Shown one piece after another: positions 36,332 to 64,000 of a stretch of 64,000 bases of DNA. The notes beneath the pieces are model-generated. The model was not told the origin of the DNA and made no database searches. It saw nothing but the letters and a program-made list of their open reading frames with translations. The DNA comes from Flavobacterium magnum (GTDB taxonomy: Bacteria; Bacteroidota; Bacteroidia; Flavobacteriales; Flavobacteriaceae): NCBI RefSeq assembly GCF_003055625.1, contig NZ_CP028811.1, positions 3,038,001-3,102,000 of the forward strand, read 5' to 3'. Each line of letters opens with the position of its first letter. Positions within the stretch are counted from its first letter, which is position 1. The position numbers were made by a program, and so were the translations under genes.

Positions 36332-37381
36332 ATGAATTGGAAAGCCGTTACCACAACCCATAAGGGCGCCGCCAGGATTGTACTCTATGCTGATAAAGAT
36401 CCTGTATTGGTGCAAAAGATACGATCCATTGAAGGATGCCTTTGGAGCCGCACACTGCAGGCCTGGCATGTGCCGGACACGCCTGAAAACCGTAGACTGC
36501 TTGAAGCTAGAAGCAATGGTAAGTCGGTGCTGTCGCGTATCTGTCCCGTCAACCAGCCGGTCCTTGAGCGTTTTGTCGAACAATTGTCGCTGCACGGATA
36601 CAGCGTCCACACGATCAGGAAGTACAGGGGTGACTTTGGCGATTTTCTGTATTGGCTGCAGGAAATACCTGCCTATCAATGCCATCAGGAACAGGTTCGC
36701 TCCTATATCCTGCAATGCATCATCCAAAGACTCAGCAGTGACGCGCTGATACACAGCCGGCTGAACGCCCTGACGTTTTATTATGTCAGGATGCTCCGGC
36801 GCGAACAATTTTTTGTCGACATCCCCAGACCCAAAAAGCCGCGGAAACTGCCAAAGGTCATTCCTGTTGACGTCATCAGGAAACTTTTTGCCGCAACGAC
36901 CAACCTGAAGCACAATACCATATTGAAATTGTGTTACGGCATGGGCCTCCGCGTGTCAGAAATCTGCGCCCTTAAGATTTCAGATGTTGACAGCCAGAAC
37001 ATGCAGGTTCTTATCGAATGCGGCAAGGGTAAAAAGGACCGTTATGCGAACCTGCCGCAAAGCATCCTGAAGCAACTGCGGGCCTATTACCTGCAATACA
37101 AGCCGAAGCGTTACCTTTTCGAGGGAAAGGACGGTGGCCCATATGCCATCCGGACAATCCAGCTAATTTTTCATGAGGGCATGCAGAAAACGGGGTTTAA
37201 CCGAAAACTGGGCATACACAGCCTCAGGCACAGTTTTGCGACCCATTTGCTTGAACAGGGCACCGACGTGCGGTTCATACAGGAATTGCTGGGACACACA
37301 AACATCAAGACGACGCTACTTTACACCGAAGTAAGTGACAATAATATCCGCAAAATCGTGAGCCCTTTAGACAACCTGTAA
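36332..37381 (+). CDS. Tyrosine recombinase next to the cassette array (candidate array integrase)
   Basis: 349 residues with all catalytic residues: R207 ('GMGLRVSEIC'), K232 or K234 in 'GKGKKDR', H296 and R299 ('HSLRHSFATH'), H322 ('LLGHTNIKTT') and nucleophile Y331 ('LLYTEV'). Residues 75-165 are the SAM-like core-binding domain. The first 60 residues ('IEGCLWSRTLQAWHVPDTPENRR') form an extra N-terminal module often seen in Bacteroidota recombinases. The segment between 'KKDR' and 'HSLRH' is short and lacks the roughly 16-residue helix-containing insert specific to integron IntI. The gene runs in the same direction as the cassettes and stops 205 bp before the first one. A TAATTTG at 36282 may be part of its promoter. 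That it moves the cassettes is inference from position. Confidence 0.9.
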   Translation: MNWKAVTTTHKGAARIVLYADKDPVLVQKIRSIEGCLWSRTLQAWHVPDTPENRRLLEARSNGKSVLSRICPVNQPVLERFVEQLSLHGYSVHTIRKYRGDFGDFLYWLQEIPAYQCHQEQVRSYILQCIIQRLSSDALIHSRLNALTFYYVRMLRREQFFVDIPRPKKPRKLPKVIPVDVIRKLFAATTNLKHNTILKLCYGMGLRVSEICALKISDVDSQNMQVLIECGKGKKDRYANLPQSILKQLRAYYLQYKPKRYLFEGKDGGPYAIRTIQLIFHEGMQKTGFNRKLGIHSLRHSFATHLLEQGTDVRFIQELLGHTNIKTTLLYTEVSDNNIRKIVSPLDNL

Positions 37382-37586
37382 ATAGAATGGCGGCGGCACG
37401 GCACAACTCCATCCCTTTCCGGCGCCTACCCCTGCAATTCATACATTCAAAACCATGATTATAAATTTAAAAAGCACTATATTTGGACATCAGACACGCC
37501 TCGTAACACATTTTTGCGCAATGCGCATTCTTGTATATCACCTTTTATTACAGGATGATTTTGATTTTACTGCGTGTATTTGATTG
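37382..37586 (+). other. Lead-in region with putative attI-like insertion site
   Basis: No gene. The first cassette joins at 37586/37587 in GTGTATTTGATTG|TTATGGGC; the bases left of the junction do not resemble attC, whereas the other copy of this cassette (63667) is preceded by CCGCCGGACG. The left side is therefore the best candidate for an attI-type primary site. It also holds a TATATTTG promoter element. Confidence 0.6.
37478..37485 (+). promoter_or_regulatory. Putative cassette promoter (Pc-like) -7 element
   Basis: TATATTTG matches TAnnTTTG exactly and points into the array, about 100 bp before the first cassette. The -33 position carries ATG (37455-37457, 20 nt away) instead of TTG. 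Confidence 0.5.
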
Positions 37587-37632
37587 TTATGGGCAAGCGC
37601 GGCGCAACGAACACGAAATCAACACTTAAAAC

Positions 37633-37965
37633 ATGATCGAAAGCTTAGAAATAGAAGAACTTGACAATTACTTATCTTATATTCGTCCGAGCGAAGAACT
37701 GAGATCAAAAATTGACATTGCTTATAGGATTGAAAAGCAAAGCGTGATAATTTTTGAGGTTACGCCGCATTGGAAAGATCCAAAACAGAAAATTGAAAGT
37801 AATGTTGCAAAGGCAACTTTCGTAAAAAAAGATAATCATTGGAAAGTCTTTTGGCGTCGTGCTGATTTGAAATGGCACTCTTACAAACCAATGCCTATAG
37901 TTGAAAATCTTCTTGACTTTACTAGATTAATCGAAAAGGATGAATATAATTGCTTTTGGGGATAA
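37633..37965 (+). CDS. Cassette 1: DUF3024 family protein
   Basis: Cassette 37587-38102. 110 residues: 'RSKIDIAYRIEKQSVIIFEVTPHWKDP', 'VAKATFVKKDNHWKVFWRRADLKWHSY' and the ending 'DEYNCFWG' are the DUF3024 pattern. Soluble, function unknown. The same gene starts again at 63713 near the end of the window with three base differences over the 334 bp that can be compared, so the cassette exists in two copies, one of them in the first array position. Confidence 0.85.
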   Translation: MIESLEIEELDNYLSYIRPSEELRSKIDIAYRIEKQSVIIFEVTPHWKDPKQKIESNVAKATFVKKDNHWKVFWRRADLKWHSYKPMPIVENLLDFTRLIEKDEYNCFWG

Positions 37966-37972
37966 TTGCGCC

Positions 37973-38108
37973 AGCCCATAACAGCGGTTTCACGCAATTG
38001 CTGCTTCTCTTGTAAAATGAACCGCCTTTTTCCATAACTTCGTCTTGTCCAGCCGAGAATACTCAGTTCCAAAAGCCGCAACTGACGTGAAGCCGCCGGA
38101 CGTTATCA
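37973..38108 (+). repeat. attC-like site 1
   Basis: Left arm AGCCCATAAC pairs with the cassette start GTTATGGGC at 37586. Cut inferred after G38102. Confidence 0.9.
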
Positions 38109-38147
38109 GAGATTTTAGACCGACCGTAATCAAAACTTCGATTCAAA

Positions 38148-38663
38148 ATGAAAAAAAAATTACTCTTACTATTTTTATTTTCAAGCTTTTTTATTTCTGC
38201 TCAGAATTTATCAATGGCACAAATACTTGATATAAAAAAGAAAACCCTCGGAAATGCCGAAGAGTTTTTAACTGAAAAAGGATGGGAATTCTCGGAAGCA
38301 CAAGAGCCTACAGATGAACTTATGGGGAGTGCAGTATTCACATATAGAAAAAGTGATGTATCAGACGGAGCAGAATCTTTTTTGTCATTTGTCTACAGTA
38401 GCTTTTCTGATGTAACAAGAATAACTATCCAAATTAGTAAAAAAGAGAAATACATAGAATATCTAAATTCAATTAAGGGATATGGTTGTAAACAACTATC
38501 GTCAAAAGTAGAAGATGGAAAGATAGTGAAAGTCTATCAAGGAGTTACAACAACGTTTGTTATAAAATCCGCAACTACTTCAAACTATTACGATCAGGAA
38601 GTTGTTACTTGGATTTTATCTGTTTTTTCTAATGAAGATTACAAACTAAATTTTGGCGAATAA
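38148..38663 (+). CDS. Cassette 2: secreted protein of unknown function
   Basis: Cassette 38103-38800. 171 residues with a Sec signal peptide (MKKKLLLLFLFSSFFISAQ). The mature part is polar with 'LGNAEEFLTEKGWEFSEAQEP' and several short beta-prone stretches. I do not recognise a family. Base use is A+T-rich like the other cassettes. Confidence 0.8.
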   Translation: MKKKLLLLFLFSSFFISAQNLSMAQILDIKKKTLGNAEEFLTEKGWEFSEAQEPTDELMGSAVFTYRKSDVSDGAESFLSFVYSSFSDVTRITIQISKKEKYIEYLNSIKGYGCKQLSSKVEDGKIVKVYQGVTTTFVIKSATTSNYYDQEVVTWILSVFSNEDYKLNFGE

Positions 38664-38670
38664 TAAAAAC

Positions 38671-38806
38671 CTCTGATAACAGCGGTTTCACGCAATTGCT
38701 ACCCACTTTGTAAAATGAACCACCTTTTTCCATAACTTCGTTCTGTCCAGCCGAGAGTACTCAGTTCCAAAAGCCGCAACTGACGTGAAGCCGCCGGACG
38801 TTGTGC
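38671..38806 (+). repeat. attC-like site 2
   Basis: Left arm CTCTGATAAC pairs fully with the cassette 2 start GTTATCAGAG. Cut after G38800. Confidence 0.92.
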
Positions 38807-38842
38807 GACAGCAATGTTGGAGCGTATAAAAATCCTGTGTAA

Positions 38843-39568
38843 ATGAACGTAATTGATGAAATAAATTCTGAAGGTTTTACAATAATTGAAAATGTTTATT
38901 CAGCTGACGAAATCGACAAATTGATTTCTAATATTGAAAATGTTGGTATTCAAAATCAGCACAAAAATACTTACCGAAAATCTGATGATTTGTTTGCTGT
39001 AAGACAATTTTTCAATGAGTTTCCACAAGCATTGGAAATAGTATTCAATAGCAGTTTAAAGCAAATCATCAAAACTAATTTTGGTGATAACTATTTTGTC
39101 ACAAAATCTATATACTTTGACAAACCAGAAAAGTCTAATTGGTTTGTTTCTTATCACCAGGATTTGACAATCTCAGTAAATCAAAAATTAGAGCTTGACG
39201 GGTTTGAAAATTGGACAGTAAAACAAAATCAATTCGCTGTCCAACCTCCGGAAAATATTTTGAAGAATTGTTTTACTATCAGAATTCATTTGGATAATAC
39301 GTCTAAAGAAAATGGCGCGTTGAAAGTCATCAATAAATCTCATTCTAAAGGAATTGTCAGACTTGATAATTTTACTTCGAAAACTGGAAATGAAAGCATT
39401 TGCGAAGTTGAAAAAGGTGGAATTATGATTATGAAACCTTTACTATTTCATGCGTCAAACAAAACCACTAATAATGAAAGACGGAGAGTTATCCATATTG
39501 AGTTTTGCAATCAACAATTACCTAACGGATTAAATTGGAATGAGAAAGTGGAATTCAATTTAAACTAA
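38843..39568 (+). CDS. Cassette 3: PhyH-type Fe(II)/2-oxoglutarate dioxygenase
   Basis: Cassette 38801-39708. 241 residues. N-terminal 'INSEGFTIIENVYSADEIDKLISNI' is the usual phytanoyl-CoA dioxygenase opening. Iron ligands H105 and D107 ('SYHQDLTI') and H203 ('PLLFHASNKTT') are present, with arginines 213-215 near the 2-oxoglutarate site. Substrate unknown; the family hydroxylates many small molecules. One of few cassettes encoding a recognisable metabolic enzyme. Confidence 0.85.
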   Translation: MNVIDEINSEGFTIIENVYSADEIDKLISNIENVGIQNQHKNTYRKSDDLFAVRQFFNEFPQALEIVFNSSLKQIIKTNFGDNYFVTKSIYFDKPEKSNWFVSYHQDLTISVNQKLELDGFENWTVKQNQFAVQPPENILKNCFTIRIHLDNTSKENGALKVINKSHSKGIVRLDNFTSKTGNESICEVEKGGIMIMKPLLFHASNKTTNNERRRVIHIEFCNQQLPNGLNWNEKVEFNLN

Positions 39569-39578
39569 TATTTTGCCG

Positions 39579-39714
39579 ATCGCACAACAGCGGTTTCACG
39601 CAATTGCTGCTTACCTTGTAAAATGAAACATCTTTTTCCATAAATTCGTTTCGTCCAGCCGAGAACACTCAGCTTCGAAAGCCGCAACTGACGTGAAGCC
39701 GCCGGACGTTATGC
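39579..39714 (+). repeat. attC-like site 3
   Basis: Left arm TCGCACAAC pairs with GTTGTGCGA. One bulged A restores pairing further out, including the usual C-A mismatch. Cut after G39708. Confidence 0.9.
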
Positions 39715-39762
39715 GACAGCTTGCCGCGGACGTGAAAAATCCTCGTAATAGAATACATCATT

Positions 39763-40188
39763 ATGCGAATCTTAATTAATAAATCTAGTTTTTTCTTTAT
39801 AAGTCTAATCTTACTTGCTTGTTCCTCAAAAAAATTTCGTGATGACAAAAAACTGATATTTCTTAATTTTGGATCACCATATGAAAATGTAAAAGTTTCA
39901 TCGCTTTCAATTAATGATTCTATTTATTTCAGTGATAAAAATTTGGTTACGGGCATATTTGGAGTCGATAGTGATTTTTCTATTCAATTAAAAACTGACA
40001 CAGTTTCAATTAAAGGAACTTTCGTTAATACACTTGATCCAGACTTAGGTGAAAATTTTATTAAGGAAATAAAAATAGATACTGTTTTGTATAAAAGAAA
40101 TGGCAATCTTATATCAATTGGCATTGGTTTTGACAAATATGGCGTGAATCAAAGAAAGATGCGTCGAAAAAAAGTAAAAGTTGATTGA
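39763..40188 (+). CDS. Cassette 4: lipoprotein of unknown function
   Basis: Cassette 39709-40329. 141 residues; a lipoprotein signal ends in LLACSSKKF. The mature domain alternates hydrophobic and polar residues as in a small beta-sandwich ('VKVSSLSINDSIYFSDKNLVTGIFG', 'DTVSIKGTFVNTL'). No known motif; ends in a basic tail. Confidence 0.78.
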   Translation: MRILINKSSFFFISLILLACSSKKFRDDKKLIFLNFGSPYENVKVSSLSINDSIYFSDKNLVTGIFGVDSDFSIQLKTDTVSIKGTFVNTLDPDLGENFIKEIKIDTVLYKRNGNLISIGIGFDKYGVNQRKMRRKKVKVD

Positions 40189-40199
40189 CCTAATAAGCC

Positions 40200-40335
40200 G
40201 TCGCATAACAGCGGTTTCACGCAATTGCTACTTACCGTGTACAATGAACTTCTTTTTTCCATAACTTCGTTTTGTCTAGCCGAGAGTACTCAGTTCCAAA
40301 AGCCGCAACTGACGTGAAGCCGCCGGACGTTATGC
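40200..40335 (+). repeat. attC-like site 4
   Basis: Left arm GTCGCATAAC pairs with GTTATGCGAC at the start of cassette 4. Cut after G40329. Confidence 0.92.
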
Positions 40336-40365
40336 GATATTTTGCTGCGAACGTAAACCAACATC

Positions 40366-40776
40366 ATGAAATTTTTAAAAATCATTTTGCTTTTCCTAAT
40401 TTGTATTGTATTTCATGCGTGCGATACGTCTTCATTTGCAGAAATCATTAACAAAACTGATAAAGAAATTACTGTTGAAATATTTTATAATCGATCAGAA
40501 TTAGAAAAAGTTCCTGGATTGAAATCTATCAAACCTTATTTCAATAATGATGCACAACTTATAAATTTTGATTCAGTGTCCATGATCGGAAGACTAAAAA
40601 TAAATCCAAATGACACTTTAATTATTGATTCAAACCGTGGCTCAAATCCTCGATTTAAATTTATCAGAACGCTGAAAATTTTTGCTGATGATACGATCAA
40701 GTTGAATAATCAAAATGAAATTTCTAAATCATTTAAAGAAACTTCTCCTGGAATTTTCGCTTTCGAATTTAAATAA
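40366..40776 (+). CDS. Cassette 5: lipoprotein of unknown function
   Basis: Cassette 40330-40909. 136 residues with a lipoprotein signal ending in FHACDTSSF. The region 'EIINKTDKEITVEIFYNRSELEKVPG' suggests a small beta-rich domain. No family recognised. Starts 27 bp after the cassette boundary sequence. Confidence 0.78.
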   Translation: MKFLKIILLFLICIVFHACDTSSFAEIINKTDKEITVEIFYNRSELEKVPGLKSIKPYFNNDAQLINFDSVSMIGRLKINPNDTLIIDSNRGSNPRFKFIRTLKIFADDTIKLNNQNEISKSFKETSPGIFAFEFK

Positions 40777-40779
40777 AAC

Positions 40780-40915
40780 ATCGCATAACAGCGGTTTCAC
40801 GCAATTGCTGCTTCCCTTGTAAAATGAACCGCCTTTTTCCAAAACTTCGTTTTGTCCAGCCGAGAGTACTTAGTTCCAAATGCCGCAACTGACGTGAAGC
40901 CGCCGGACGTTAGCG
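40780..40915 (+). repeat. attC-like site 5
   Basis: Left arm ATCGCATAAC pairs with GTTATGCGAT. Cut after G40909. Confidence 0.92.
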
Positions 40916-40976
40916 GTAATGCTGCCGCGAATGAGCGAAAATAAAGACATTTAGGTTATAGATAGTAAAAATACTT

Positions 40977-41483
40977 ATGGAATTACCAATATTTAAATAC
41001 AATCCAAACGCATACAAACTGGATATCATTGTTAAAGAAAACATTCTCTGTGAATGTTGTGGAGAAAAGCGTGAATATCGCTACGATGGACCATTTTACG
41101 CTGAAGAAGAAATAGAAAATATTTGTCCTTGGTGTATTAAAAATGGAAAAGCTTCTGAAAAATTTGAAGGAGAATTTCAAGATTCTGCAAGCGTGGATGA
41201 TGTTGAAAATGAGTCTGCAATTACTGAAATTTCGCAACAAACTCCAGGATTTTGTGCAATTCAACAAGAAAACTGGTTAGCTCATTGTGATGATTTATGT
41301 GCATTTATTGGCTATGCAAAACCAGAATTAGTTAAACCAATCATTGATGACTTAATCGAGGATATTGAAGATAGCGGATTCGATGTAGATGAAGTTGTCA
41401 AAAGCTTAAAAAAAGAAGAACTTGACGGTTACGTATTTCAATGTTTACATTGTGGCAAACACAGAATTTATTTTGACGATTAG
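40977..41483 (+). CDS. Cassette 6: CbrC family (UPF0167) protein
   Basis: Cassette 40910-41616. 168 residues: 'LPIFKYNPNAYKL', 'CECCGEKREYRYDGPFYAEEE', 'ICPWCIKNGKASEKFEGEFQD', 'TPGFCAIQQENWLAHCDDLCAFIG' and a last Cys pair 'FQCLHCGKHRIYFD'. This Cys-pair order is that of CbrC, which in E. coli is linked to colicin E2 tolerance. Probably metal-binding and cytosolic. Role here unknown. Confidence 0.88.
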   Translation: MELPIFKYNPNAYKLDIIVKENILCECCGEKREYRYDGPFYAEEEIENICPWCIKNGKASEKFEGEFQDSASVDDVENESAITEISQQTPGFCAIQQENWLAHCDDLCAFIGYAKPELVKPIIDDLIEDIEDSGFDVDEVVKSLKKEELDGYVFQCLHCGKHRIYFDD

Positions 41484-41486
41484 CAC

Positions 41487-41622
41487 TACCGCTAACAGCG
41501 GTTTCACGCAATTGCTGTTTGTCTTGTAAAATGAACCGCCTTTTTCCATAACTTCGTTCTGTCCAGCCGAGAATACTCAGTTCCAAAAGCCGCAACTGAC
41601 GTGAAGCCGCCGGACGTTAGCA
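41487..41622 (+). repeat. attC-like site 6
   Basis: Left arm TACCGCTAAC pairs with GTTAGCGGTA. Cut after G41616. Confidence 0.92.
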
Positions 41623-41789
41623 GAAATTAAACCGCACCATCACGAATCCGACTCAAATTAGCTTAGGAAAAATTGATTATTACAGCTAACAATATTTAAT
41701 AAAATCATTATGTTTGTAATCAATCACTACTAATAGTAATCCAAAAACTCGAAATAGCAATCCAAAAACATAAATTAACTGTTGAAATT

Positions 41790-42200
41790 ATGAAAAAAGC
41801 CTATTATTCTTTGATTATTTTTATCTTCTTTGTGTGCAATCTCCACGCTCAAGATATTAAGTTTGATGATAATAAAGTGTTAGTTGATAAAACTGAAAGA
41901 TTCGATTTTGTTAGGAAAAGTATGGGGACTGAGTTCTCGCTATATAAATTAAATACCAAAGATGAAATCATATACATGACTTCTGAAAGAAATGGTACCG
42001 ATAGATATTTTGATGACGATTTTAGGAGAATTACTTTTGTTGAACAAAAAATTACAATTGAATCTAGCAGGCTTAAATTTGACAGTTGGAAAGCGATAAT
42101 TAAGCTTTTATTGGAAGATAAAGTTATAGATTTTGAAGGTAATATTGATGCAGAGAGGTTAGAAAGATTTTCAGCTAAATATAATGATGTGAAGCGTTAA
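41790..42200 (+). CDS. Cassette 7: secreted protein of unknown function
   Basis: Cassette 41617-42332. 136 residues, Sec signal peptide (MKKAYYSLIIFIFFVCNLHAQ). The mature part is charged and mixed alpha/beta, with 'FRRITFVEQKITIESSRLKFDSWKAIIKLLLEDKVID'. No family recognised. It has an unusually long leader of 170 bp containing TATGTTTG at 41709, a possible own promoter. Confidence 0.75.
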   Translation: MKKAYYSLIIFIFFVCNLHAQDIKFDDNKVLVDKTERFDFVRKSMGTEFSLYKLNTKDEIIYMTSERNGTDRYFDDDFRRITFVEQKITIESSRLKFDSWKAIIKLLLEDKVIDFEGNIDAERLERFSAKYNDVKR

Positions 42201-42201
42201 C

Positions 42202-42338
42202 TTCTGCTAACAGCGGTTTCACGCAATTGCTGCTTTCCTTGTAAAATGTAACCGCTTTTTCCATAACTTCGTTTTGTCCACGCCGAGAATACTCAGTTCC
42301 AAATGCCGCAACTGACGTGAAGCCGCCGGACGTTAGCT
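42202..42338 (+). repeat. attC-like site 7 (121-bp type)
   Basis: Left arm TTCTGCTAAC pairs with GTTAGCAGAA. Contains GTCCACGCC. Cut after G42332. Confidence 0.92.
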
Positions 42339-42372
42339 GTCAGTTTTCGGCGAACCTAGAAAAATCACGTAA

Positions 42373-42849
42373 ATGAGTAAAATCTATTTCATTTTATCGG
42401 TTATACTTTTGTTAGTTTTCGTTAGCTGTAAAAACGAAACGCAAAAATATATTCCTAATAAGTTTGAAAGAATATGGTACTCAATAGATGGGCGCTTAAA
42501 AATTGATTCTTCGCATGCTTTTGAGTATGTTAAGTATACTTGTGTCTCTCAATCAATCTCAAAAGGGAAATGGAATATAGTCAATGACACTATATTTCTC
42601 AATAGTTTTTCTCCATATGGATGCTATTTTGAAGAAGAATTTGGAATTCCACCATCAGCTGACACAACTCAGTTTACACCACTTAAAACGACCGAAAAGA
42701 ATTGCGAACCAAATAGCGGTTATGTAAATTTTAGAAATGAAAAATTCTATATAAAAGATTCGATACTCATATCGAAAAAATCTACCTATTATGAAAATGG
42801 GGAATTTAATCTTCATACCAACTTTAAAATGAAAAACTACTACGAATAA
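42373..42849 (+). CDS. Cassette 8: lipoprotein of unknown function
   Basis: Cassette 42333-42983. 158 residues; the lipoprotein signal ends in FVSCKNETQ. Mature part: 'ERIWYSIDGRLKIDSS', 'SISKGKWNIVNDTIFLNSF', 'YVNFRNEKFYIKDSILISKKS', which looks like a lipocalin-like or META-like small beta barrel fold, but without a decisive motif. Three further cysteines may pair. Confidence 0.78.
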   Translation: MSKIYFILSVILLLVFVSCKNETQKYIPNKFERIWYSIDGRLKIDSSHAFEYVKYTCVSQSISKGKWNIVNDTIFLNSFSPYGCYFEEEFGIPPSADTTQFTPLKTTEKNCEPNSGYVNFRNEKFYIKDSILISKKSTYYENGEFNLHTNFKMKNYYE

Positions 42850-42853
42850 AACC

Positions 42854-42989
42854 GTCAGCTAACAGCGGTTTCACGCAATTGCTGCTTCCTTTGTAAAATG
42901 AACGACCTTTTTCCATAACTTCGTTCTGTCCAGCCGAGAGTACTCAGCTTCGAAAGCCGCAACTGACGTGAAGCCGCCGGACGTTATGC
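42854..42989 (+). repeat. attC-like site 8
   Basis: Left arm CGTCAGCTAAC pairs with GTTAGCTGTC except one T-T mismatch. Cut after G42983. Confidence 0.9.
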
Positions 42990-43029
42990 ATAATGCGGCA
43001 GTGCGTGTGGAAATCCTGACATTAATCAT

Positions 43030-43037
43030 TATATTTG
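43030..43037 (+). promoter_or_regulatory. Own promoter (-7 element) of the toxin-antitoxin cassette
   Basis: TATATTTG, exact consensus, 16 bp before the mntA-like ATG. The -33 position is not convincing. Confidence 0.55.
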
Positions 43038-43052
43038 AATCAAATTAAAAAA

Positions 43053-44973: not shown

Positions 44974-44975
44974 AC

Positions 44976-56918: not shown

Positions 56919-56963
56919 GTAATATCGTTGCCAATTGGGAGAATTCAATAACCTATGTAAGAA

Positions 56964-57524
56964 ATGAAAATTATAAAATTCCTATTAATCTTTGGTTGTA
57001 TCATATTCATATTTTTTTTGTTCTTCGGTTATGACAAAAATTATGGATTCTACTTTAAAGAAGACTTACATATTGAAGAAAAAGTTTCATCAATTTCGTA
57101 TATGGAGGATAACTACGAAATTTCTATAAAAGATCATGGGATAGGAATTAGTGGCAATAACTACTCAATAATTTTTAGTGGCTCAATTTTAAATAAATCA
57201 CCTCATACCTTAGAATCAATAATCGTAATTCCTAGACTGAATGTTGAATTAGAAGGAAAGAATGTTGAAGTAGATTTGAGTAATTTTGCTGTTATGAGTC
57301 CAGGTCAAAAATTGTCGCCACAAGAAAATCTAAAGTTTACAAAAGTACTAGATTTTAAAAACTTCAATTTAGATTATTTAAATTATAAAGCAACAAAGGC
57401 TACATTTAGTATAACTTTCGAGGGAAGTAATTCCTTGGATTATAAAATTTCTGATCATGCAAATGTTTACTGGTGGGGCACAGATTCGGATATAACGCTT
57501 GAATGGAATATGATCTCCAAATAG
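56964..57524 (+). CDS. Cassette 30: membrane-anchored beta-rich protein
   Basis: Cassette 56913-57658. 186 residues. One N-terminal helix ('IIKFLLIFGCIIFIFFLFFGY') anchors an extracytoplasmic part with repeated strands: 'NYSIIFSGSILNKSPHTLESIIVIPRLNVELEGKNVEVDLSNF' and 'YKATKATFSITFEGSNSLDYKI'. The pattern resembles an Ig-like or LEA-type beta sandwich. Family unknown. Confidence 0.77.
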   Translation: MKIIKFLLIFGCIIFIFFLFFGYDKNYGFYFKEDLHIEEKVSSISYMEDNYEISIKDHGIGISGNNYSIIFSGSILNKSPHTLESIIVIPRLNVELEGKNVEVDLSNFAVMSPGQKLSPQENLKFTKVLDFKNFNLDYLNYKATKATFSITFEGSNSLDYKISDHANVYWWGTDSDITLEWNMISK

Positions 57525-57528
57525 ATAC

Positions 57529-57664
57529 TACAGCTAACAGCGGTTTCACGCAATTGCTGCGTCTCTTGAAAAATGTAACACCTTTTTCCATAACTTCGTT
57601 CTGTCCAGCCGAGAGTACTCAGTTCCAAAAGCCGCAACTGACGTGAAGCCGCCGGACGTTAGCT
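57529..57664 (+). repeat. attC-like site 30
   Basis: Left arm TACAGCTAAC pairs with GTTAGCTGTA. Cut after G57658. Confidence 0.92.
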
Positions 57665-57753
57665 GTAATTTTTTGACGATCGGGAGTATTCATGAACTTA
57701 ACATACGAATCGAGATTAATTTTTTCGTATTATGAAATTGTAAAAAAAACGAA

Positions 57754-58035
57754 ATGATGCTTGAAGATAAAATTATTGGGTTTTGTAAGTTTATTTCGAA
57801 GGTTATTTTAGTCGCTTTCACATTGTTTATTTCTTATCTGTACTTTATTGCTTTGTCTGAAAAAATCGAACGACCAAACTTTAAAAACTTGTCAAATACC
57901 GAATTTGTAATTTTCGGGTTTATAATACTTACTCTTATTTTTTGGAATCTTGTAGTTTTCGGAATCTTAAATAGCAATAAAAAAAACAAAATAACTCTTA
58001 ATGGACCGATAGCAAAAAACAAAAACTACAGCTAA
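57754..58035 (+). CDS. Cassette 31: small two-helix membrane protein
   Basis: Cassette 57659-58156. 93 residues with helices 'VILVAFTLFISYLYFIAL' and 'FVIFGFIILTLIFWNLVVFGIL' and a basic tail. Its stop codon lies inside the attC arm. No family recognised. Confidence 0.72.
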   Translation: MMLEDKIIGFCKFISKVILVAFTLFISYLYFIALSEKIERPNFKNLSNTEFVIFGFIILTLIFWNLVVFGILNSNKKNKITLNGPIAKNKNYS

Positions 58036-58162
58036 CAGCGGTTTCACGCAATTGCTGCTTCTCTTGTAAAATGAACTTCTTTTTTCCATAACTTCGTTTT
58101 GTCCAGCCGAGAGTACTCAGTTCCAAATGCCGCAACTGACGTGAAGCCGCCGGACGTTAGCA
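58027..58162 (+). repeat. attC-like site 31
   Basis: Left arm TACAGCTAAC pairs with GTTAGCTGTA. Cut after G58156. Confidence 0.92.
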
Positions 58163-58182
58163 GCAATTGTAAAACGAACGCC

Positions 58183-58557
58183 ATGAATAAACTGACAATA
58201 ATGCTCTTTTTTATCTTACTAACGCAAATGAATTTTGCGCAGCCGGGCTCATTGATAACCAAAAATATTTCAACTGAATCTCAAATCACTGTCAAACAAA
58301 TTGGAAATAGAGGATTATTAAAAAATGGGAATGTTTATTTTGTAGAAGATGATTTACAAACTATATCGGGTTATAATAAAAATAAAAAAATTTGGCAAGT
58401 GAATATTATAAAGATTTTAGGCAAACCAAAAGCTGGAAGATCTGCTATTCATTACATAAAACTAAGTGATAAAAGCTTACATATAACTTACGGAAAGCAT
58501 AATTTTGCTGTGTTAAATATAGAAAACGGAGAAATAATTTCACATGGAGCAGAATAA
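58183..58557 (+). CDS. Cassette 32: secreted protein of unknown function
   Basis: Cassette 58157-58695. 124 residues from MNKLTIMLFFILLTQMNFAQ, a Sec signal peptide; an open frame continues upstream through the attC but is not a sensible start. Mature part has repeated strand pairs: 'GLLKNGNVYFVEDDLQTISGYNKNKKIWQVNIIKIL' and 'IKLSDKSLHITYGKHNFAVLNIENGEIIS', which read like propeller-type blades. Unrecognised. Confidence 0.77.
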   Translation: MNKLTIMLFFILLTQMNFAQPGSLITKNISTESQITVKQIGNRGLLKNGNVYFVEDDLQTISGYNKNKKIWQVNIIKILGKPKAGRSAIHYIKLSDKSLHITYGKHNFAVLNIENGEIISHGAE

Positions 58558-58564
58558 CAACAAC

Positions 58565-58701
58565 TGCTGCTAACAGCGGTTTCACGCAATTGCTGCTTCC
58601 TTTGTAAAATGAACCATCTTTTTCCATAACTTCGTTTTGTCCACGCCGAGAATACTCAGTTCCAAAAGCCGCAACTGACGTGAAGCCGCCGGACGTTATC
58701 T
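58565..58701 (+). repeat. attC-like site 32 (121-bp type)
   Basis: Left arm TGCTGCTAAC pairs with GTTAGCAGCA. Cut after G58695. Confidence 0.92.
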
Positions 58702-58750
58702 ACAAGCACCCAAAAATTGCGCATAAAGCGTGCTAATTAAATATGTAAAG

Positions 58751-59047
58751 ATGATTTTAACTGAGTTCATTGAAAACATTCATAATGTAAATAATGACTA
58801 TTCATTACTATTTGCAAAGAGAATTAATGGCCAATTCTTACATAATTCTGAAATAGCAATTCTAGACATTTCGGACGAAGAAAATAACGTTATGGCAAAT
58901 CGAATTGAAGCTTTAAAATCTTTGGGCTTTGATTATTTCCTGGAAACCTTTTTAATAAAAGAAATGCTTGAAGATTTATCAGAAAATTTCAGTAACGCAG
59001 ATCAAATTATAAATCATATCATTTCTTACGCTGAAAATGACGCATAA
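58751..59047 (+). CDS. Cassette 33: small hypothetical protein
   Basis: Cassette 58696-59189. 98 residues from ATG; a GTG seven codons upstream is possible. Soluble, mixed: 'MILTEFIENIHNVNNDYSLLFAKRINGQF' and 'IKEMLEDLSENFSNADQIINHIISYAEND'. Acidic. No family recognised. Confidence 0.7.
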   Translation: MILTEFIENIHNVNNDYSLLFAKRINGQFLHNSEIAILDISDEENNVMANRIEALKSLGFDYFLETFLIKEMLEDLSENFSNADQIINHIISYAENDA

Positions 59048-59059
59048 AGTTCAAGTGCC

Positions 59060-59195
59060 TGTAGATAACAGCGGTTTCACGCAATTGCTACTTTTCGTGT
59101 AAAATGAACTTCTTTTTTCCATAACTTCGTTATGTCCAGCCGAGAATACTCAGTTCCAAAAGCCGCAACTGACGTGAAGCCGCCGGACGTTATGC
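59060..59195 (+). repeat. attC-like site 33
   Basis: Left arm TGTAGATAAC pairs with GTTATCTACA. Cut after G59189. Confidence 0.92.
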
Positions 59196-59229
59196 GATAC
59201 CGCGGCGTGTGTTCCAAAATTGACGAAAA

Positions 59230-59622
59230 ATGAAAATTAGATATTTTATACTATTTTTTTTAATACTGATATCGGTTGGAATTTATGTTGCTTTTTTCTA
59301 TGAAAAACATCTTGATGAAAAAGTATATAAAAATGGTGATATAACTTTAAAGGTCTATAAAATAAGTAGAATTTCAACAGTACATGATTATATAGATCTT
59401 GAAAGATGGGGTTATTGCAAAAATATTTACGAGGCAAATACTGGAGGAATATACAATATCATCCTTAAAAAAGATATGGTCATTATTCAAACGTATAAAG
59501 CTGGTATTTACGAACTGGCTGCAAAAACTCTTGAAACTGAAATAAAAATAGATTCTTCTATAACCACTTATCGATACATGAAAAAATTTCAACCTCAAAA
59601 CGCAAAATATTATAAGCAATAA
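59230..59622 (+). CDS. Cassette 34: membrane-anchored protein of unknown function
   Basis: Cassette 59190-59763. 130 residues; N-terminal helix ('YFILFFLILISVGIYVAFFY') and a small extracytoplasmic domain, 'GDITLKVYKISRISTVHDYIDLERWGYCKNIYE' and 'GGIYNIILKKDMVIIQTYKAGIYEL'. A+T-rich. No family recognised. Confidence 0.76.
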   Translation: MKIRYFILFFLILISVGIYVAFFYEKHLDEKVYKNGDITLKVYKISRISTVHDYIDLERWGYCKNIYEANTGGIYNIILKKDMVIIQTYKAGIYELAAKTLETEIKIDSSITTYRYMKKFQPQNAKYYKQ

Positions 59623-59633
59623 TTATTTTCGGC

Positions 59634-59769
59634 ATCGCATAACAGCGGTTTCACGCAATTGCTCCTTCCCTTGTATAATTAACTTCTTTTTTCCATAACT
59701 TCGTTCTGTCCAACCGAGAGTACTCAGTTCCAAAAGCCGCAACTGACGTGAAGCCGCCGGACGTTGTGT
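59634..59769 (+). repeat. attC-like site 34
   Basis: Left arm ATCGCATAAC pairs with GTTATGCGAT. Cut after G59763. Confidence 0.92.
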
Positions 59770-59807
59770 GCTATTTTTCGAGCTACACCGAAACTTACAA
59801 TCAAAAA

Positions 59808-61574
59808 ATGAAATTATTTTTATTATTCAGTTTATTTATATTACAGGGTAATGTGTATTGCCAAGAGGATTTATCTCTCAATAATTTTGATGAAAACTTT
59901 TTAAAAATATTAATTAATGAAAAAGTTTTTTATAATTACGAAAATAATAAGTATGAGTACATTGATGAAAACGGAGACAATTTAATTCAAAAATCAGAAG
60001 CCGAAAAAGTTACAGTATTGCATCTAACTAAATTAAAAATAAATACGTCTTCTTTAAAAGGCATAGAAAATTTTACAAACTTAGAATACTTATCTTTTGA
60101 GAATTTAGATATTACAGATTTACACCTGACTAAACTTAATAAATTAGACGCCCTAAAATTTAATAATAGCAAAATTGTCAGTATCAAACTAAATGATTTA
60201 AAAAATCTGTCTTATATTGAAATTGGGGATAACAACCTAAACCTTAAAGAAATAAATCTAAACCAGTTAATAAAAATAAAAAAAATAGTGATTGGGAGTA
60301 ACAATTTAAGTCTCCAAAAAATTGATATCAAAAATATTAAAACCCTGTCTGACTTCATAATTGGAGGTAATAATGGTAAGCTTAAAATAATAAATTTTAA
60401 AGGTGTTAAAAACATTATCAATTTTTCTTGTATAAACAGAGAAACGAAAATAATAAATTTTGTTCCCGACAGTTTAAAATCTTTACATTGCCATTATAAT
60501 TTACTACAATCCATCGAATCTAAAATCAAAAAAAATCTAAAGGATTTGACTTTATATTCAGGTAATGATAAAATTAAAATTAGTGATTACAACAATCTTG
60601 AATATTTTAATGCAAGAAACAATGATTATTTCTATGATTCAGAAATAAAGAACATCAGTTATCTATATTTTGAAAACTTACCTAATTTACAAATAGTAAA
60701 TTGTTCTGATATTCATTTAAATAACCTCGATTTTAAAAATGTAAACAACTTATTAAGTTTAGATTGTAGTAAAAATAACTTAATGAGCTTGCCTGAGATA
60801 AATTTGAAAAGCATTAATTGTAGTTCTAATAAATTAACAACTTTACCCACTCAAGGTATGCTAAATTTAGAAAGTTTAGATTGCAGTAAAAACAATTTTG
60901 AAAGTATAAATTTTGATATTTTTGGAAATTTAAAAAATATTAATTGTAGCTCAAATAAATTAAAAAAAATTGATGTTAATCAATTAAAAAAAATAGAACA
61001 ACTCGATTGTAGCTCGAATAACATAACAAAAATACACCTAGAAGATCTCGAAAATCTAGTATATTTTAATTGTCGTTTTAATGACAGTCTTAAAAACCTA
61101 GTGTTAAAAAATATTTATTTAAAAGAACTCCTATTAAGCGAATCCGTTAGATATATTTGTGTAGATAATTTTTTCCTAAACAATATCAAATTTTCTGCGT
61201 CTTCACCAAATCTTTTGATTAATAGCGATTGTAATGAAAATAGCTTTGAAAAAACTAAAATAAAAATAGATCTTACAACAATAGAAAATGCTTTAATTGA
61301 ATTCGATAATGCTCTACAACACGAAGATATTTATAAGCTAAAATATATTTGTACTCGAGAAGGTTTTAATGAAATCACACCAATAAAAGATCTTTTTTTT
61401 GGTAAAACACTTTTAGAAAATTATAATAATGGCTTATTTAATATTCAAAATCAAAATACGCTTGCTATAGAAATAAATGTAGATAAATATAAAGTGTACT
61501 ACTATTTTTTTAAGCAACTTAGCGAGTGGAAATATTTTGGCTTACGAAATTTAAGTAATTTTCATAAATATTAA
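59808..61574 (+). CDS. Cassette 35: secreted leucine-rich-repeat protein
   Basis: Cassette 59764-61752, the largest (1989 bp). 588 residues from MKLFLLFSLFILQGNVYCQ, a Sec signal peptide. 'YIDENGDNLIQKSEAEKVTVLHL' resembles a calcium-loop lead-in, then about 18 irregular LRR units with N-rich consensus ('LKNINCSSNKLKKIDVNQLKKIEQLDCSSNNITKI', 'LDCSKNNL'). The C-terminal 100 residues are a separate alpha/beta domain. Internalin-like LRR proteins bind other proteins outside the cell. Extremely A+T-rich. Confidence 0.85.
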   Translation: MKLFLLFSLFILQGNVYCQEDLSLNNFDENFLKILINEKVFYNYENNKYEYIDENGDNLIQKSEAEKVTVLHLTKLKINTSSLKGIENFTNLEYLSFENLDITDLHLTKLNKLDALKFNNSKIVSIKLNDLKNLSYIEIGDNNLNLKEINLNQLIKIKKIVIGSNNLSLQKIDIKNIKTLSDFIIGGNNGKLKIINFKGVKNIINFSCINRETKIINFVPDSLKSLHCHYNLLQSIESKIKKNLKDLTLYSGNDKIKISDYNNLEYFNARNNDYFYDSEIKNISYLYFENLPNLQIVNCSDIHLNNLDFKNVNNLLSLDCSKNNLMSLPEINLKSINCSSNKLTTLPTQGMLNLESLDCSKNNFESINFDIFGNLKNINCSSNKLKKIDVNQLKKIEQLDCSSNNITKIHLEDLENLVYFNCRFNDSLKNLVLKNIYLKELLLSESVRYICVDNFFLNNIKFSASSPNLLINSDCNENSFEKTKIKIDLTTIENALIEFDNALQHEDIYKLKYICTREGFNEITPIKDLFFGKTLLENYNNGLFNIQNQNTLAIEINVDKYKVYYYFFKQLSEWKYFGLRNLSNFHKY

Positions 61575-61622
61575 TTAATTTTTAATTTAAAATAAATCCA
61601 CAGTAAGGGTGATTAAAAAAAC

Positions 61623-61758
61623 AGCACACAACAGCGGTTTCACGCAATTGCTGCTTCCCTTGTAAAATGTAACTGCTTTTTCCATAACTTCGTTTTGTCT
61701 CGCCGAGAGTACTCCGTTCCAAATGCCGCAACTGACGTGAAGCCGCCGGACGTTAGCT
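61623..61758 (+). repeat. attC-like site 35
   Basis: Left arm AGCACACAAC pairs with GTTGTGTGCT, continuing for five more bases beyond the mismatch. Cut after G61752. Confidence 0.92.
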
Positions 61759-61793
61759 GTTATGCCGCCTCGAACGCACTTAATAGACCCATC

Positions 61794-62594
61794 ATGAATC
61801 AAAAAAAGCAATTAATCTTTAGTGGTGTTTTTCTCTACATGAATGATGAAAAATTATTACCCGATATTTTTAAAGAAAAAATACCGCCAGGTCAATGCAC
61901 AAATGACACTGACACGAAAGTTCAAACATTTAATATAGTTTATGATGATAGGTACTTAAAACTTAGTTTCGGCGATGGAATGTTAGGTCCGAGAAATCCA
62001 AAAGTTTTTAATCTTGAAACACATGAAGAAGAGGAAAATCCAAGACAAAAGCATCAAATAGAGCCAAGGCAAACATTTGCTATAATTGATTTTAATACAA
62101 GTTTTTTATGGATAAGTAATTCAAAAAAAAGAAGTGCTCTAATTGAGCTATTAAAACATTATTTTCCAACTACTTTAATTACCGCTAAAGATATTTACGA
62201 CGAGACTCAATTTGTTGAAACTCTGCGAAGGCTTGATACAATAAAAGTTTCAGCGGTTCCAAATTTATTAAGTCAAACTGGAATATTAAGTGATAAACTT
62301 TGTGAAGAAATAAATGGTTATGAAGCCAATGTTGCAACACTTTCTCTATCTTATAATAATAGATACACGTCAGATTATTTGATAGAAAAAGTTAAATCTA
62401 TTTTTGGACAGAAAAATGCATTAAAAAGTATCGTAATTTCGGGAAGGGATAATAATAATTTAGGAATGCTTTTCAATACAGAAGGTTTTTCCAGAAAAAT
62501 TGAAGTCGAAGCAATTGTTGATGATGATGAAATGTTTGATCCAGAAGATGTATTTTTAAAATTACGAACAAAAATAGAAAGTGAAAATATTTAA
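61794..62594 (+). CDS. Cassette 36, gene 1: hypothetical protein of a two-gene system
   Basis: Cassette 61753-63187. 266 residues from MNQKKQLIFSGVFLYM. Soluble, mixed alpha/beta: 'QTFAIIDFNTSFLWISNSKKRSALIELLKHYFPTTLITAKDIYDETQFVETLRRLDTIKVSAVPNLL' and 'KSIVISGRDNNNLGMLFNTEGFSRKIEVEAIVDDDEMFD'. I do not recognise the family. It overlaps a membrane-protein gene by 14 bp; a soluble sensor plus membrane effector pair is common in anti-phage operons (inference). Confidence 0.78.
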   Translation: MNQKKQLIFSGVFLYMNDEKLLPDIFKEKIPPGQCTNDTDTKVQTFNIVYDDRYLKLSFGDGMLGPRNPKVFNLETHEEEENPRQKHQIEPRQTFAIIDFNTSFLWISNSKKRSALIELLKHYFPTTLITAKDIYDETQFVETLRRLDTIKVSAVPNLLSQTGILSDKLCEEINGYEANVATLSLSYNNRYTSDYLIEKVKSIFGQKNALKSIVISGRDNNNLGMLFNTEGFSRKIEVEAIVDDDEMFDPEDVFLKLRTKIESENI

Positions 62595-63051
62595 ATATTC
62601 TTTAGTAGTTGTCTTGTCCATTGGAATTATCTTGTGGATTGCATGTCGCTTGGAACTAAATAATGCTGCATTAGATGTTATAGCAACTTTTCTATCCATT
62701 ACTACTGGTTTCACAATTACCGCTTTATCAATCATTGCTACTTCTCCATTTTCAAAATTTCTATATTCCGTCGAATCCGCGAATGATAATTCAAAAACAC
62801 TTTTACACAAATTAGTTGATAATTTTAGAATTTCAACATTTCTTTTTATCACAACAATTGGACTAATAATTGCTTTTAATTTTTTGCCCAAAGAATTTAC
62901 CGGAAAAATATATCAATTCTATTTCTGTAGTTTTTCAACAGCAGACTTACTAAAGTCAATAATTTTCTACTTCACAATTTTATCTTTTCTTTCTTTCATT
63001 TTATTATTTCATACTTTTTCTAAATTTGTCACAAAATCAGCTACAAGTTAA
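62581..63051 (+). CDS. Cassette 36, gene 2: four-helix membrane protein
   Basis: 156 residues from a GTG inside the end of gene 1, so translation is coupled. Helices: 'YSLVVVLSIGIILWIACRL', 'LDVIATFLSITTGFTITALSIIA', 'ISTFLFITTIGLIIAFNFL' and 'SIIFYFTILSFLSFILLFHTF'. No family recognised; likely the effector or anchor of gene 1. Confidence 0.78.
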   Translation: MKIFKYSLVVVLSIGIILWIACRLELNNAALDVIATFLSITTGFTITALSIIATSPFSKFLYSVESANDNSKTLLHKLVDNFRISTFLFITTIGLIIAFNFLPKEFTGKIYQFYFCSFSTADLLKSIIFYFTILSFLSFILLFHTFSKFVTKSATS

Positions 63052-63057
63052 AGGCAC

Positions 63058-63193
63058 AACAGCTAACAGCGGTTTCACTCAATTGCTGCTTCTCTTGTAA
63101 AATGAACCACCTTTTTCCATAACTTCGTTCTGTCCAGCCGAGAATACTCAGTTCCAAAAGCCGCAACTGACGTGAAGCCGCCGGACGTTACAG
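63058..63193 (+). repeat. attC-like site 36
   Basis: Left arm AACAGCTAAC pairs with GTTAGCTGTT. Reads TTTCACTCAATTGC where all others have TTTCACGCAATTGC. Cut after G63187. Confidence 0.9.
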
Positions 63194-63666
63194 GCAATTG
63201 CTCCGTGTCCGAAATGACGATTTTCGTAATTGAATGGCTCGGCTTGCGTAATCACAAATCAACTTCTCTCCTATTTTTCAAAGAGCAACTTTGTGGCTCA
63301 GTTTTGAAACCTTGGCCGGGATTTTCTGATCTCCATTTACTTTTCTTCTTGCCGAGAAATCTCTGCGAAGCTCAATTGGGCTGTATTGCTGCTTAAGTCT
63401 TTGTCAATTTCTTTGTCTTGAAAAATGCTGAAAATCTCCTTTTCAAAATTCTAAACTTTAACGTGGTTCTCAAAAAAACTATCGCAGTAGAAATTCTTTG
63501 TGGTTACTTTGCGTGATTTTGCGCCTGTGTCGCAACAGCCTGTAACAGCGGCTTCACGCAATTGCTGCTTTCTTTGTAAAATGAACTTCTTTTTTCCATA
63601 ACTTCGTTTTGTCCAGCCGAGAGTACTCAGTTCCAAACGCCGCAACTGACGTGAAGCCGCCGGACG
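63188..63666 (+). other. Cassette 37: second copy of the non-coding cassette
   Basis: 479 bp, homologous along its length to cassette 16 but with many substitutions, more than seen between the other duplicate pairs. No conserved reading frame links the two copies. Confidence 0.6.
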
Positions 63667-63672
63667 TTATGG
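63537..63672 (+). repeat. attC-like site 37
   Basis: Left arm GCCTGTAAC pairs with GTTACAGGC; GGCTTCACG variant as in site 16. Cut after G63666. Confidence 0.9.
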
Positions 63673-63712
63673 GCAAGCGCGGCGCAACGAACACGAAATC
63701 AACACTTAAAAC

Positions 63713-64000
63713 ATGATCGCAAGCTTAGAAATAGAAGAACTTGACAATTACTTATCTTATATTCGTCCGAGCGAAGAACTGAGATCAAAAATTGACATTG
63801 CTTACAGGATTGAAAAGCAAAGCGTGATAATTTTTGAGGTTACGCCGCATTGGAAAGATCCAAAACAGAAAATTGAAAGTAATGTTGCAAAGGCAACTTT
63901 TGTAAAAAAAGATAATCATTGGAAAGTCTTTTGGCGTCGTGCTGATTTGAAATGGCACTCTTACAAACCAATGCCTATAGTTGAAAATCTTCTTGACTTT
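63713..64000 (+). CDS. Cassette 38: DUF3024 protein, second copy, cut by window end
   Basis: Starts MIASLEIEELDNYL and follows cassette 1 codon for codon to the window end (96 of 110 residues). Over the shared 334 bp (63667-64000 against 37587-37920) I count three base differences. It shows that the array continues beyond this window. Confidence 0.88.
   Translation, partial: MIASLEIEELDNYLSYIRPSEELRSKIDIAYRIEKQSVIIFEVTPHWKDPKQKIESNVAKATFVKKDNHWKVFWRRADLKWHSYKPMPIVENLLDF

What the first reader, a model, noticed from the sequence alone, without database searches (positions are those of the whole stretch)
36332..64000. Large integron-like cassette array in a flavobacterial chromosome
Seen: 37 attC-like sites, same orientation, AAC-to-GTT spacing of exactly 120 or 121 bp, separated by single unrelated genes all on one strand, next to a tyrosine recombinase. 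The conserved parts (AACAGCGGTTTCACG, CCGGACGTT) have the layout of integron attC sites and the overall length of the Vibrio cholerae repeats. Known: large sedentary integrons are best described in Vibrio and other Proteobacteria. Inference: this is a distinct, active or recently active cassette-capture system of Bacteroidota.
Basis: partly seen in the sequence, partly recalled or inferred. Interest (0 to 1): 0.95.

Follow-up and report, generated by a model that had tools for sequence, protein, structure and literature searches.

The report
Giant integron-like array without IntI
A bacterial chromosome, likely of Flavobacterium, carries a row of 253 gene cassettes next to a recombinase that lacks the hallmark domain of integron integrases and likely moves the cassettes, and the same layout recurs in several Bacteroidota families, so gene-capturing integrons likely come in a second form.

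Summary
All 37 sites are there, all on the + strand, 125-126 bp each, and the array runs on past the window: 253 sites over 177 kb, 5% of a 3.46 Mb genome. A cassette's first 12 bases are largely complementary to its own last 12, not to its neighbours', around one fixed A.C mispair at base 8 (243 of 253). A second fixed mispair lies in the inner stem at site position 18 (248 of 250 analysed). Divergent sites in relatives keep both mispairs while their arms covary, so selection likely acts on a folded strand, as in attC sites. The neighbouring tyrosine recombinase is not IntI: it lacks the IntI-specific block (42 alignment columns), as do all 55 family members aligned. Cassettes of this type follow the recombinase in 32 of 37 relatives tested (within 400 bp in 24), in several Bacteroidota families, and on plasmids. 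Cassettes 94-99.7% identical occur in species and families whose recombinase genes are only 51-71% identical. Best reading: an integron-like system run by a separate recombinase family. Recombination itself is untested.

The parts
36332..37381 (+). Tyrosine recombinase, 349 aa, catalytic R207-K232-H296-R299-H322-Y331; lacks the IntI-specific domain; N-terminal extension of about 70 residues; transcribed towards the cassettes
   Evidence: Pfam Phage_integrase 8e-38; TIGR02249 182 bits, cut-off 265; residues invariant in 36 aligned sequences; domain absent
37382..37586 (+). Leader between recombinase and first cassette: candidate cassette promoter and attI
   Evidence: sequence; in relatives the interval ends in a similar junction close to TATAAACAAG^TT (consensus by eye)
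37478..37485 (+). TATATTTG, candidate Bacteroidota -7 promoter element (TAnnTTTG, name recalled); inferred Pc
   Evidence: sequence; TAnnTTTG within 60 nt of the recombinase end in 21 of 42 relatives, 1.7 expected; in the query it lies about 100 nt after the stop, outside the interval of that test
37586..37588 (+). attI junction G^TT: start of cassette 1
   Evidence: complementary to the own end of cassette 1 at 37968-37982
37587..38102 (+). Cassette 1 (DUF3024 / PDC-S43 candidate defence gene 37633-37965), a 99% copy of cassette 38, which starts at 63667
37980..38104 (+). First attC-like site
37980..63668 (+). All 37 attC-like sites of the window, starting at 37980 38678 39586 40207 40787 41494 42209 42861 43697 44304 44983 45866 46606 47137 47821 48300 48816 49515 50089 50868 51371 52569 53262 53846 54366 55003 55544 56244 56790 57536 58034 58572 59067 59641 61630 63065 63544; each 125 or 126 bp
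37587..64000 (+). Cassette array; continues outside the window to genome position 3252608 (253 sites in all)
47945..48422 (+). Cassette 16, gene-less member of a repeated family of about 354 bp (11 copies in the array)
63188..63666 (+). Cassette 37, second copy of that family in the window

Best explanation
The locus is a 253-cassette integron-like array in which the adjacent tyrosine recombinase, which lacks the IntI-specific domain, likely cuts out and inserts single-gene cassettes. Shown: the array, the recombinase with all catalytic residues, own-end complementarity of the cassettes, two fixed mispairs in otherwise largely complementary arms, covariation of the arms across divergent sites, the recurring order recombinase - junction - cassettes, and near-identical cassettes in different species and families. 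Inferred: a cassette circularises by recombination between the sites on either side of it; its joined ends and the inner arms fold, as one strand, into a hairpin whose two recombinase-binding arms each carry one mispair (A.C on the top strand, a tolerated G.T wobble on the bottom strand), so that the bottom strand is the substrate; the recombinase then inserts it at G^TT of attI, where a promoter between recombinase and attI would express the first cassettes. The dyad arrangement of the two mispairs about the cleavage region would let each recombinase protomer read the same mark, in place of the extrahelical base that the alpha-I2 helix of IntI reads.
For: Own ends complementary: summed run 238 against at most 105 in 20,000 permutations; over 253 cassettes, positions 1-6 match in 95-99%, 7 in 68%, 9-12 in 90-95%, position 8 is A.C in 243, and the match stops at 13. 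In relatives a caller that asks nothing of position 8 finds 97 cassettes after the recombinase, 94 with A.C, against 1 in reversed sequence and 2 upstream. Inner mispair at site position 18: 248 of 250 query sites, 63 of 66 relatives' sites. Arms covary: own 3' arm is the best partner in 17 of 17 arm classes, summed score 186 against at most 113 in 20,000 permutations. Circular-form sites fold better on the bottom strand in 250 of 250 and in 93 of 100 in relatives. Rule cassettes follow the recombinase in 32 of 37 relatives with at least 700 bp of sequence, in 24 within 400 bp; 115 in 278 kb downstream against 0 in 81 kb upstream. Exchange: 99.6% and 95.9% identical cassettes in Flavobacterium sp. 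BFFFF1 and query (recombinase DNA 70.6%), 99.7% over 1218 bp between two families (recombinase DNA 54%), the latter match including the cassette's own attC and ending at G^TT. Catalytic residues invariant.
Against: No recombination was observed. Without the outer arms the relatives' sites show no strand preference in folding (bottom better in 35 of 67), so the strand choice rests on the outer wobble. Five of 37 recombinases with at least 700 bp downstream have no called cassette (G022, G029, G032, G346, G211), and in 8 the first called one lies beyond 400 bp, once at 11.8 kb. TAnnTTTG was found in 21 of 42 leaders only, and not within 60 nt in the query. Of 21 other same-genus genomes with matches to the site model, 9 have no relative of the recombinase at the threshold used (G002, G010, G012, G013, G014, G018, G021, G031, G036).
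Confidence: 0.9

Rival explanations
1. The recombinase family is a branch of true integron integrases that secondarily lost the IntI-specific domain, so this is an ordinary integron lineage with a trimmed enzyme rather than a separate origin.
For: The sites share AAC/GTT ends, folding, length and layout with attC sites; the query protein matches TIGR02249 on both sides of the gap; structurally XerA (5hxy) and IntI (2a3v) are about equally near.
Against: All 55 family members aligned lack the block and all 19 IntI aligned have it; the two groups fall on separate branches with 99/91 and 100/98 support; in NCBIfam the best hit is the XerA model, itself under its cut-off. The tree has two Xer rows as the only outgroup and long branches, so it cannot order the splits.
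Confidence: 0.35
2. The array is moved by another recombinase of the cell (for instance XerC/XerD) and the neighbouring gene is incidental.
For: The genome holds two further Xer-like genes; 9 of 21 same-genus genomes with site matches have no family member at the threshold used.
Against: Rule cassettes lie downstream of the recombinase in relatives across families and were not called upstream (115 against 0), and a similar junction follows it.
Confidence: 0.04
3. The array is a static relic; duplicates and shared cassettes come from homologous recombination and ordinary transfer.
For: The window's sites are 94% identical by mean column and could recombine homologously; four cassettes have unmatched ends as if fused.
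Against: The recombinase is intact; the shared cassettes checked have other neighbours, and the 1218-bp match ends at G^TT; cassette 1 is a 99% copy of cassette 38, placed at attI.
Confidence: 0.05
4. The sites are a dispersed repeat family (REP- or MITE-like) that happens to sit between genes.
For: Single scattered sites exist in some relatives (G012, G013).
Against: One orientation throughout, mostly one gene between, ends complementary to the own cassette, and a recombinase at one end.
Confidence: 0.01

Closest known systems
Sedentary chromosomal integrons of Vibrio (V. cholerae 179 cassettes, V. vulnificus up to 301, up to 3% of the genome; passages of PMC11023631)
   Different: No IntI; mispairs at fixed places as the conserved marks; recombinase transcribed towards the array; 5% of the genome; class Bacteroidia
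Treponema integrons (passages of PMC3607928)
   Different: Those have IntI; another phylum
IntI integrons of other classes of GTDB Bacteroidota; Salinibacter ruber M1 is the complete integron that PMC9024848 names for Bacteroidetes proper (passages); PMC8618304 and PMC2426708 also list Bacteroidota or Bacteroidetes/Chlorobi among integron carriers (passages)
   Same: Integron integrases in the same phylum; two sampled genomes (G060, G113) hold both an IntI and a member of this family
   Different: IntI over the TIGR02249 cut-off in 104 of 390 phylum genomes, only one of them in the query's class (G095) and none in its order, family or genus
XerA / XerC-like tyrosine recombinases (PDB 5hxy, 4a8e)
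   Same: Best sequence and fold matches of the enzyme
   Different: Xer proteins act at dif-type sites and have no cassette array (recalled); the query lies under the NCBIfam XerA cut-off (194 against 220 bits)

Membership tests
Integron (IntI type) | Integrase with the IntI-specific additional domain (used as selection criterion in PMC2426708; its alpha-I2 helix contacts the region of extrahelical base G20'' in 2A3V, PMC3053210; passages) | tested here: not met
   42 IntI-only columns: 42 residues in each of 19 IntI, at most 2 in each of 55 family members; TIGR02249 matches positions 1-176 and 241-315 only
Integron (IntI type) | Tandem cassettes in one orientation, each mostly one gene plus one site | tested here: met
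   253 sites, one strand; + ORF longest in 222 of 253
Integron (IntI type) | Site with AAC..GTT ends; cassette start complementary to its own end | tested here: met
Integron (IntI type) | attC recognised as a folded single strand, bottom strand preferred | tested here: inconclusive
   Covariation and folding energies (250 of 250; 93 of 100) agree; recognition itself not testable; no bias for the relatives' inner parts alone (35 of 67)
[quoted passage not shown]
   The query's folded bottom strand has an unpaired C (facing A) and, six bases on, a bulged T, on the arm next to GTT; the bulge is in 248 of 250 query sites but only 7 of 66 relatives' sites (6 more have another base there), whereas the mispair at position 18 is in 63 of 66
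Integron (IntI type) | attI next to the integrase | tested here: met
   First called cassette starts 70-130 bp after the recombinase in 18 of 32 loci, with a junction close to TATAAACAAG^TT in most of these (by eye); 205 bp in the query; use as attI inferred
Integron (IntI type) | Cassette promoter Pc | tested here: inconclusive
   TAnnTTTG in 21 of 42 leaders, 1.7 expected; no expression data
Integron (IntI type) | Cassettes exchanged between genomes and reordered | tested here: met
   13 cross-genome pairs among 442 cassettes; first cassette of BFFFF1 is number 214 of the query at 99.6%
Integron (IntI type) | Integrase-dependent excision and insertion | not testable with these tools
   needs a bench assay
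XerA recombinase (NF040815) | Score over the curated cut-off | tested here: not met
   194.1 against 220 bits
XerC/XerD | Score over the curated cut-offs | tested here: not met
   185 against 335 and 161 against 330 bits; the genome has two separate Xer-like genes

The most novel reading that the evidence does not exclude
Integrons arose twice: a Bacteroidota tyrosine recombinase, related to Xer and XerA proteins and never an IntI, independently evolved cassette capture from folded single-stranded sites, reading a dyad pair of mispairs instead of extrahelical bases, and spread through the phylum and onto plasmids.
Probability: 0.4. Interest if true: 0.93.

Novelty: new variant of a known kind. 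Interest (0 to 1): 0.87.

Why it matters
Surveys that require IntI with its extra domain would miss or misfile this system, although the array here lies in the size range of the giant Vibrio integrons and the layout recurs in several families of a phylum that is abundant in soil, water and gut. It opens a store of mostly unknown small genes, several of them defence-like. It also makes a mechanistic question testable: whether recognition of a folded strand needs the IntI-specific helix, or can be done by a Xer-like enzyme reading mispairs.

Tried and rejected
Canonical IntI elsewhere in the genome: none over the TIGR02249 cut-off. Rfam at gathering scores: no match inside the array. Viral contigs: no match to the recombinase patterns or to the site's 3' end. 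Plasmids: no match to one site by blastn; distant recombinases are there, followed by rule cassettes in 3 of 5 records checked. A link of the N-terminal extension to HARP or DUF5710 domains is a lead only: no significant match (DUF5710 at E 0.02-0.1; HARP recalled, never hit), the single-sequence model of it is too poor (pLDDT 52), and the full model shows a beta-beta-alpha-beta-beta-alpha order there at pLDDT 65-81. In one search the head of cassette 1 was read one base off; one search corrects it. In one search the residue printed as K 233 is the glycine next to the catalytic lysine K232, which one search shows invariant.

Rows dropped or misread before counts: 3 of 253 sites whose last three bases did not read GTT (left out); two cassettes (120, 197) listed as unmatched are shifted by one base for that reason; one redundant overlapping site of G005; one IntI locus, L161, without a recognised frame; 6 recombinases whose contig ends within 700 bp; cassette proteins cut by a stretch border or under 60 aa (179 kept of 185 groups). 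One search used stricter filters that lose weak matches. The cassette caller demands the A.C mispair; repeat it without that demand.

Literature: ten searches of the held open library, listings seen only; passages read of PMC9024848, PMC2426708, PMC8618304, PMC8352920, PMC3607928, PMC11023631 and PMC3053210. No listed title or abstract start, and no passage read, describes such arrays in class Bacteroidia. Preprints and most subscription journals are not held, so this does not show that the system is undescribed.
Full report
What is there. The 37 sites exist as described and are far beyond chance. They are 125 or 126 bp from AAC to GTT, with a mean column identity of 94%, and all point the same way. 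The window cuts the array: stretches taken from the same contig carry it on to 253 sites between genome positions 3075980 and 3252608, 177 kb or 5.1% of the 3,464,207-bp contig. Cassette bodies are 32.6% G+C, the sites 48.3%, the left flank 48.8%. In 222 of 253 cassettes the longest ORF is on the array's strand, in 7 on the other, and 24 have none of 60 aa.

Cassette ends. In an integron each cassette carries its own two half-sites, so its start should be complementary to its own end and not to its neighbour's. That is the case: in the window the summed run of complementarity is 238 against at most 105 in 20,000 permutations. Over all 253 cassettes, positions 1-6 after GTT match in 95-99%, position 7 in 68%, positions 9-12 in 90-95%, and the match stops at 13. 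Position 8 is complementary in only 3 of 253; head A and tail C stand there in 243. Four cassettes (195, 221, 231, 251) have truly unmatched ends, and three of them are 1.8 kb or longer, which suggests fusions after loss of a site.

The site itself. The inner arms of the site are complementary too, again with exceptions at fixed places: position 18 is A facing C in 248 of 250 sites, position 9 is T facing G in 233 of 250, and the 3' arm has one extra base opposite positions 15-16 in 248 of 250. Relatives carry quite different sites. Among 66 of them position 18 is A facing C in 63 and position 9 T facing G in 51, while the same extra base is found in 7. Grouped into 17 arm classes, each 5' arm fits its own 3' arm best (17 of 17), with a summed score of 186 against at most 113 in 20,000 permutations; 16 of the 17 classes keep the position-18 mispair. 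So the arms covary while the mispairs stay, which is best explained by selection on a folded single strand. The outer mispair (8 bases beyond GTT) and the inner one (position 18) lie at equal distances from a centre at about site position 5.5, with A on the 3' side of each strand; this dyad arrangement is my reading of the counts. On the bottom strand both become G.T wobbles. In line with that, the circular form folds better on the bottom strand in 250 of 250 query sites (mean -32.3 against -24.9 kcal/mol) and in 93 of 100 relatives' sites. For the inner part alone relatives show no preference (35 of 67). One query site folded on its own reached z-scores of only -2.2 (bottom) and -1.1 (top) against shuffles, so energy alone would not prove the fold; the covariation carries the argument.

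The recombinase. The 349-aa protein has the catalytic residues R207, K232, H296, R299, H322 and Y331 (roles recalled), all invariant in 36 aligned sequences. It matches XerA (194 of the needed 220 bits), XerC and IntI models, all under their cut-offs. Against 19 canonical IntI from other genomes of the phylum, 42 alignment columns are present in every IntI and hold at most 2 residues in any of 55 family members. By position and size these columns are the IntI-specific additional domain, which earlier work used to recognise IntI (PMC2426708, passages) and whose alpha-I2 helix contacts the region of an extrahelical base in the solved complex (PMC3053210, passages). Family and IntI sit on separate supported branches (99/91 and 100/98), but with only two Xer rows and long branches the tree cannot tell one origin from two. 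An AlphaFold2 model (mean pLDDT 83, pTM 0.55) matches XerA 5hxy and IntI 2a3v about equally.

Recurrence. With the covariance model of the window's sites, 22 of 60 genomes including its own have matches, all in the same genus (21 of 36 others), none of 23 in other families of the order. The recombinase has relatives in 19 of those 36 (E up to 1e-40), 12 of which also have site matches, and, at E up to 1e-65, in 25 of 395 genomes of the phylum, its own included, from 14 genera. Of 43 recombinase loci of relatives read, 37 have at least 700 bp downstream, and 32 of these show cassettes with the same end rule, 24 of them starting within 400 bp; 115 such cassettes lie in 278 kb downstream, none in 81 kb upstream, 4 on the opposite strand. 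Six contigs stop within 700 bp of the recombinase, as would be expected where repeats break assemblies. A caller that asks nothing of position 8 finds 97 cassettes downstream, 94 with A.C (1 in reversed sequence, 2 upstream). The same layout occurs on plasmids of Rufibacter tibetensis, Pontibacter kalidii and Chryseobacterium sp. SNU WT5, 3 of 5 records checked.

Leader. In 18 of 32 loci with a called cassette the first one starts 70-130 bp after the recombinase, mostly behind a junction close to TATAAACAAG^TT; 21 of 42 leaders have TAnnTTTG within 60 nt, against 1.7 expected. The name of that motif as a Bacteroidota promoter element is recalled. The query has TATATTTG at 37478-37485 and the junction at 37586, 205 bp after the gene. 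The recombinase is transcribed towards the cassettes, as in Treponema integrons and unlike typical ones (PMC3607928, passages).

Movement. Among 442 cassettes from query and relatives, 13 pairs are shared between genomes. The first cassette of Flavobacterium sp. BFFFF1 equals number 214 of the query at 99.6%, its fourth equals number 82 at 95.9%, although the recombinase genes are 70.6% identical. A 1218-bp cassette is 99.7% identical in two genomes of different families whose recombinase genes are 54% identical; the identity includes the cassette's own site and ends at G^TT. Within the array 98 of 253 cassettes belong to 30 multi-copy groups, and cassette 1 is a 99% copy of cassette 38, as if recently set at attI. 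This is strong indirect evidence of recent movement; the reaction itself was not observed, and strains of one species were not compared.

Content. Of 179 representative cassette proteins scanned in two sets (90 and 89), Pfam matched 31 and 32 families, of which 25 each were listed, nearly all with one member.

Verdict. It works like an integron and fails one defining feature of the IntI type, the integrase domain; the pattern of unpaired bases is different and its membership value is inconclusive. I file it as an integron-like system of its own recombinase family, a new variant of a known kind; whether it is an independent invention is open. A canonical IntI over the cut-off is present in 104 of 390 phylum genomes but in only one of the query's class, so in that class this family is probably the prevailing cassette system (inference).

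Noticed in passing
genome 3102185-3248374, 21 copies; for example L009:2185-2300: A 116-bp gene-less cassette in 21 copies at 98% identity, with a short inverted repeat GGAGC-TCC-GCTCC inside. Regulatory or selfish role unknown.
   Followed up: partly
window 47945-48422 and 63188-63666 (11 copies in the array): A gene-less cassette family of about 354 bp; a similar-looking gene-less pair (cassettes 121 and 182) is shared with Flavobacterium sp. BFFFF1 at 85-88%.
   Followed up: partly
L018:9099-9209 and 9849-9967: Degenerate attC-like matches (40 and 23 bits) upstream of the BFFFF1 recombinase, around one gene; perhaps remnants.
   Followed up: partly
genome 3253063: A degraded site just beyond the last intact one, at the far end of the array.
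   Followed up: no
G012, G013: Isolated sites and short cassette runs in genomes without a recombinase of the family at the threshold used.
   Followed up: partly
leaders of relatives, for example L133 and L135 after the recombinase: Long inverted repeats with an inner TACCCAAA..GGGT element between the promoter-like motif and attI; role unknown.
   Followed up: no
window 36332-36541: N-terminal extension of the recombinase, predicted beta-beta-alpha-beta-beta-alpha, with a GARWS..W..P motif in relatives faintly like DUF5710; possible reader of DNA structure.
   Followed up: partly
G060, G113: Genomes holding both a canonical IntI and a member of this family on different contigs.
   Followed up: no
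window 1730-1849 (-), 2768-2845 (+), 2906-3012 (-): Two Flavo-1 RNAs and the small SRP RNA (Rfam).
   Followed up: no
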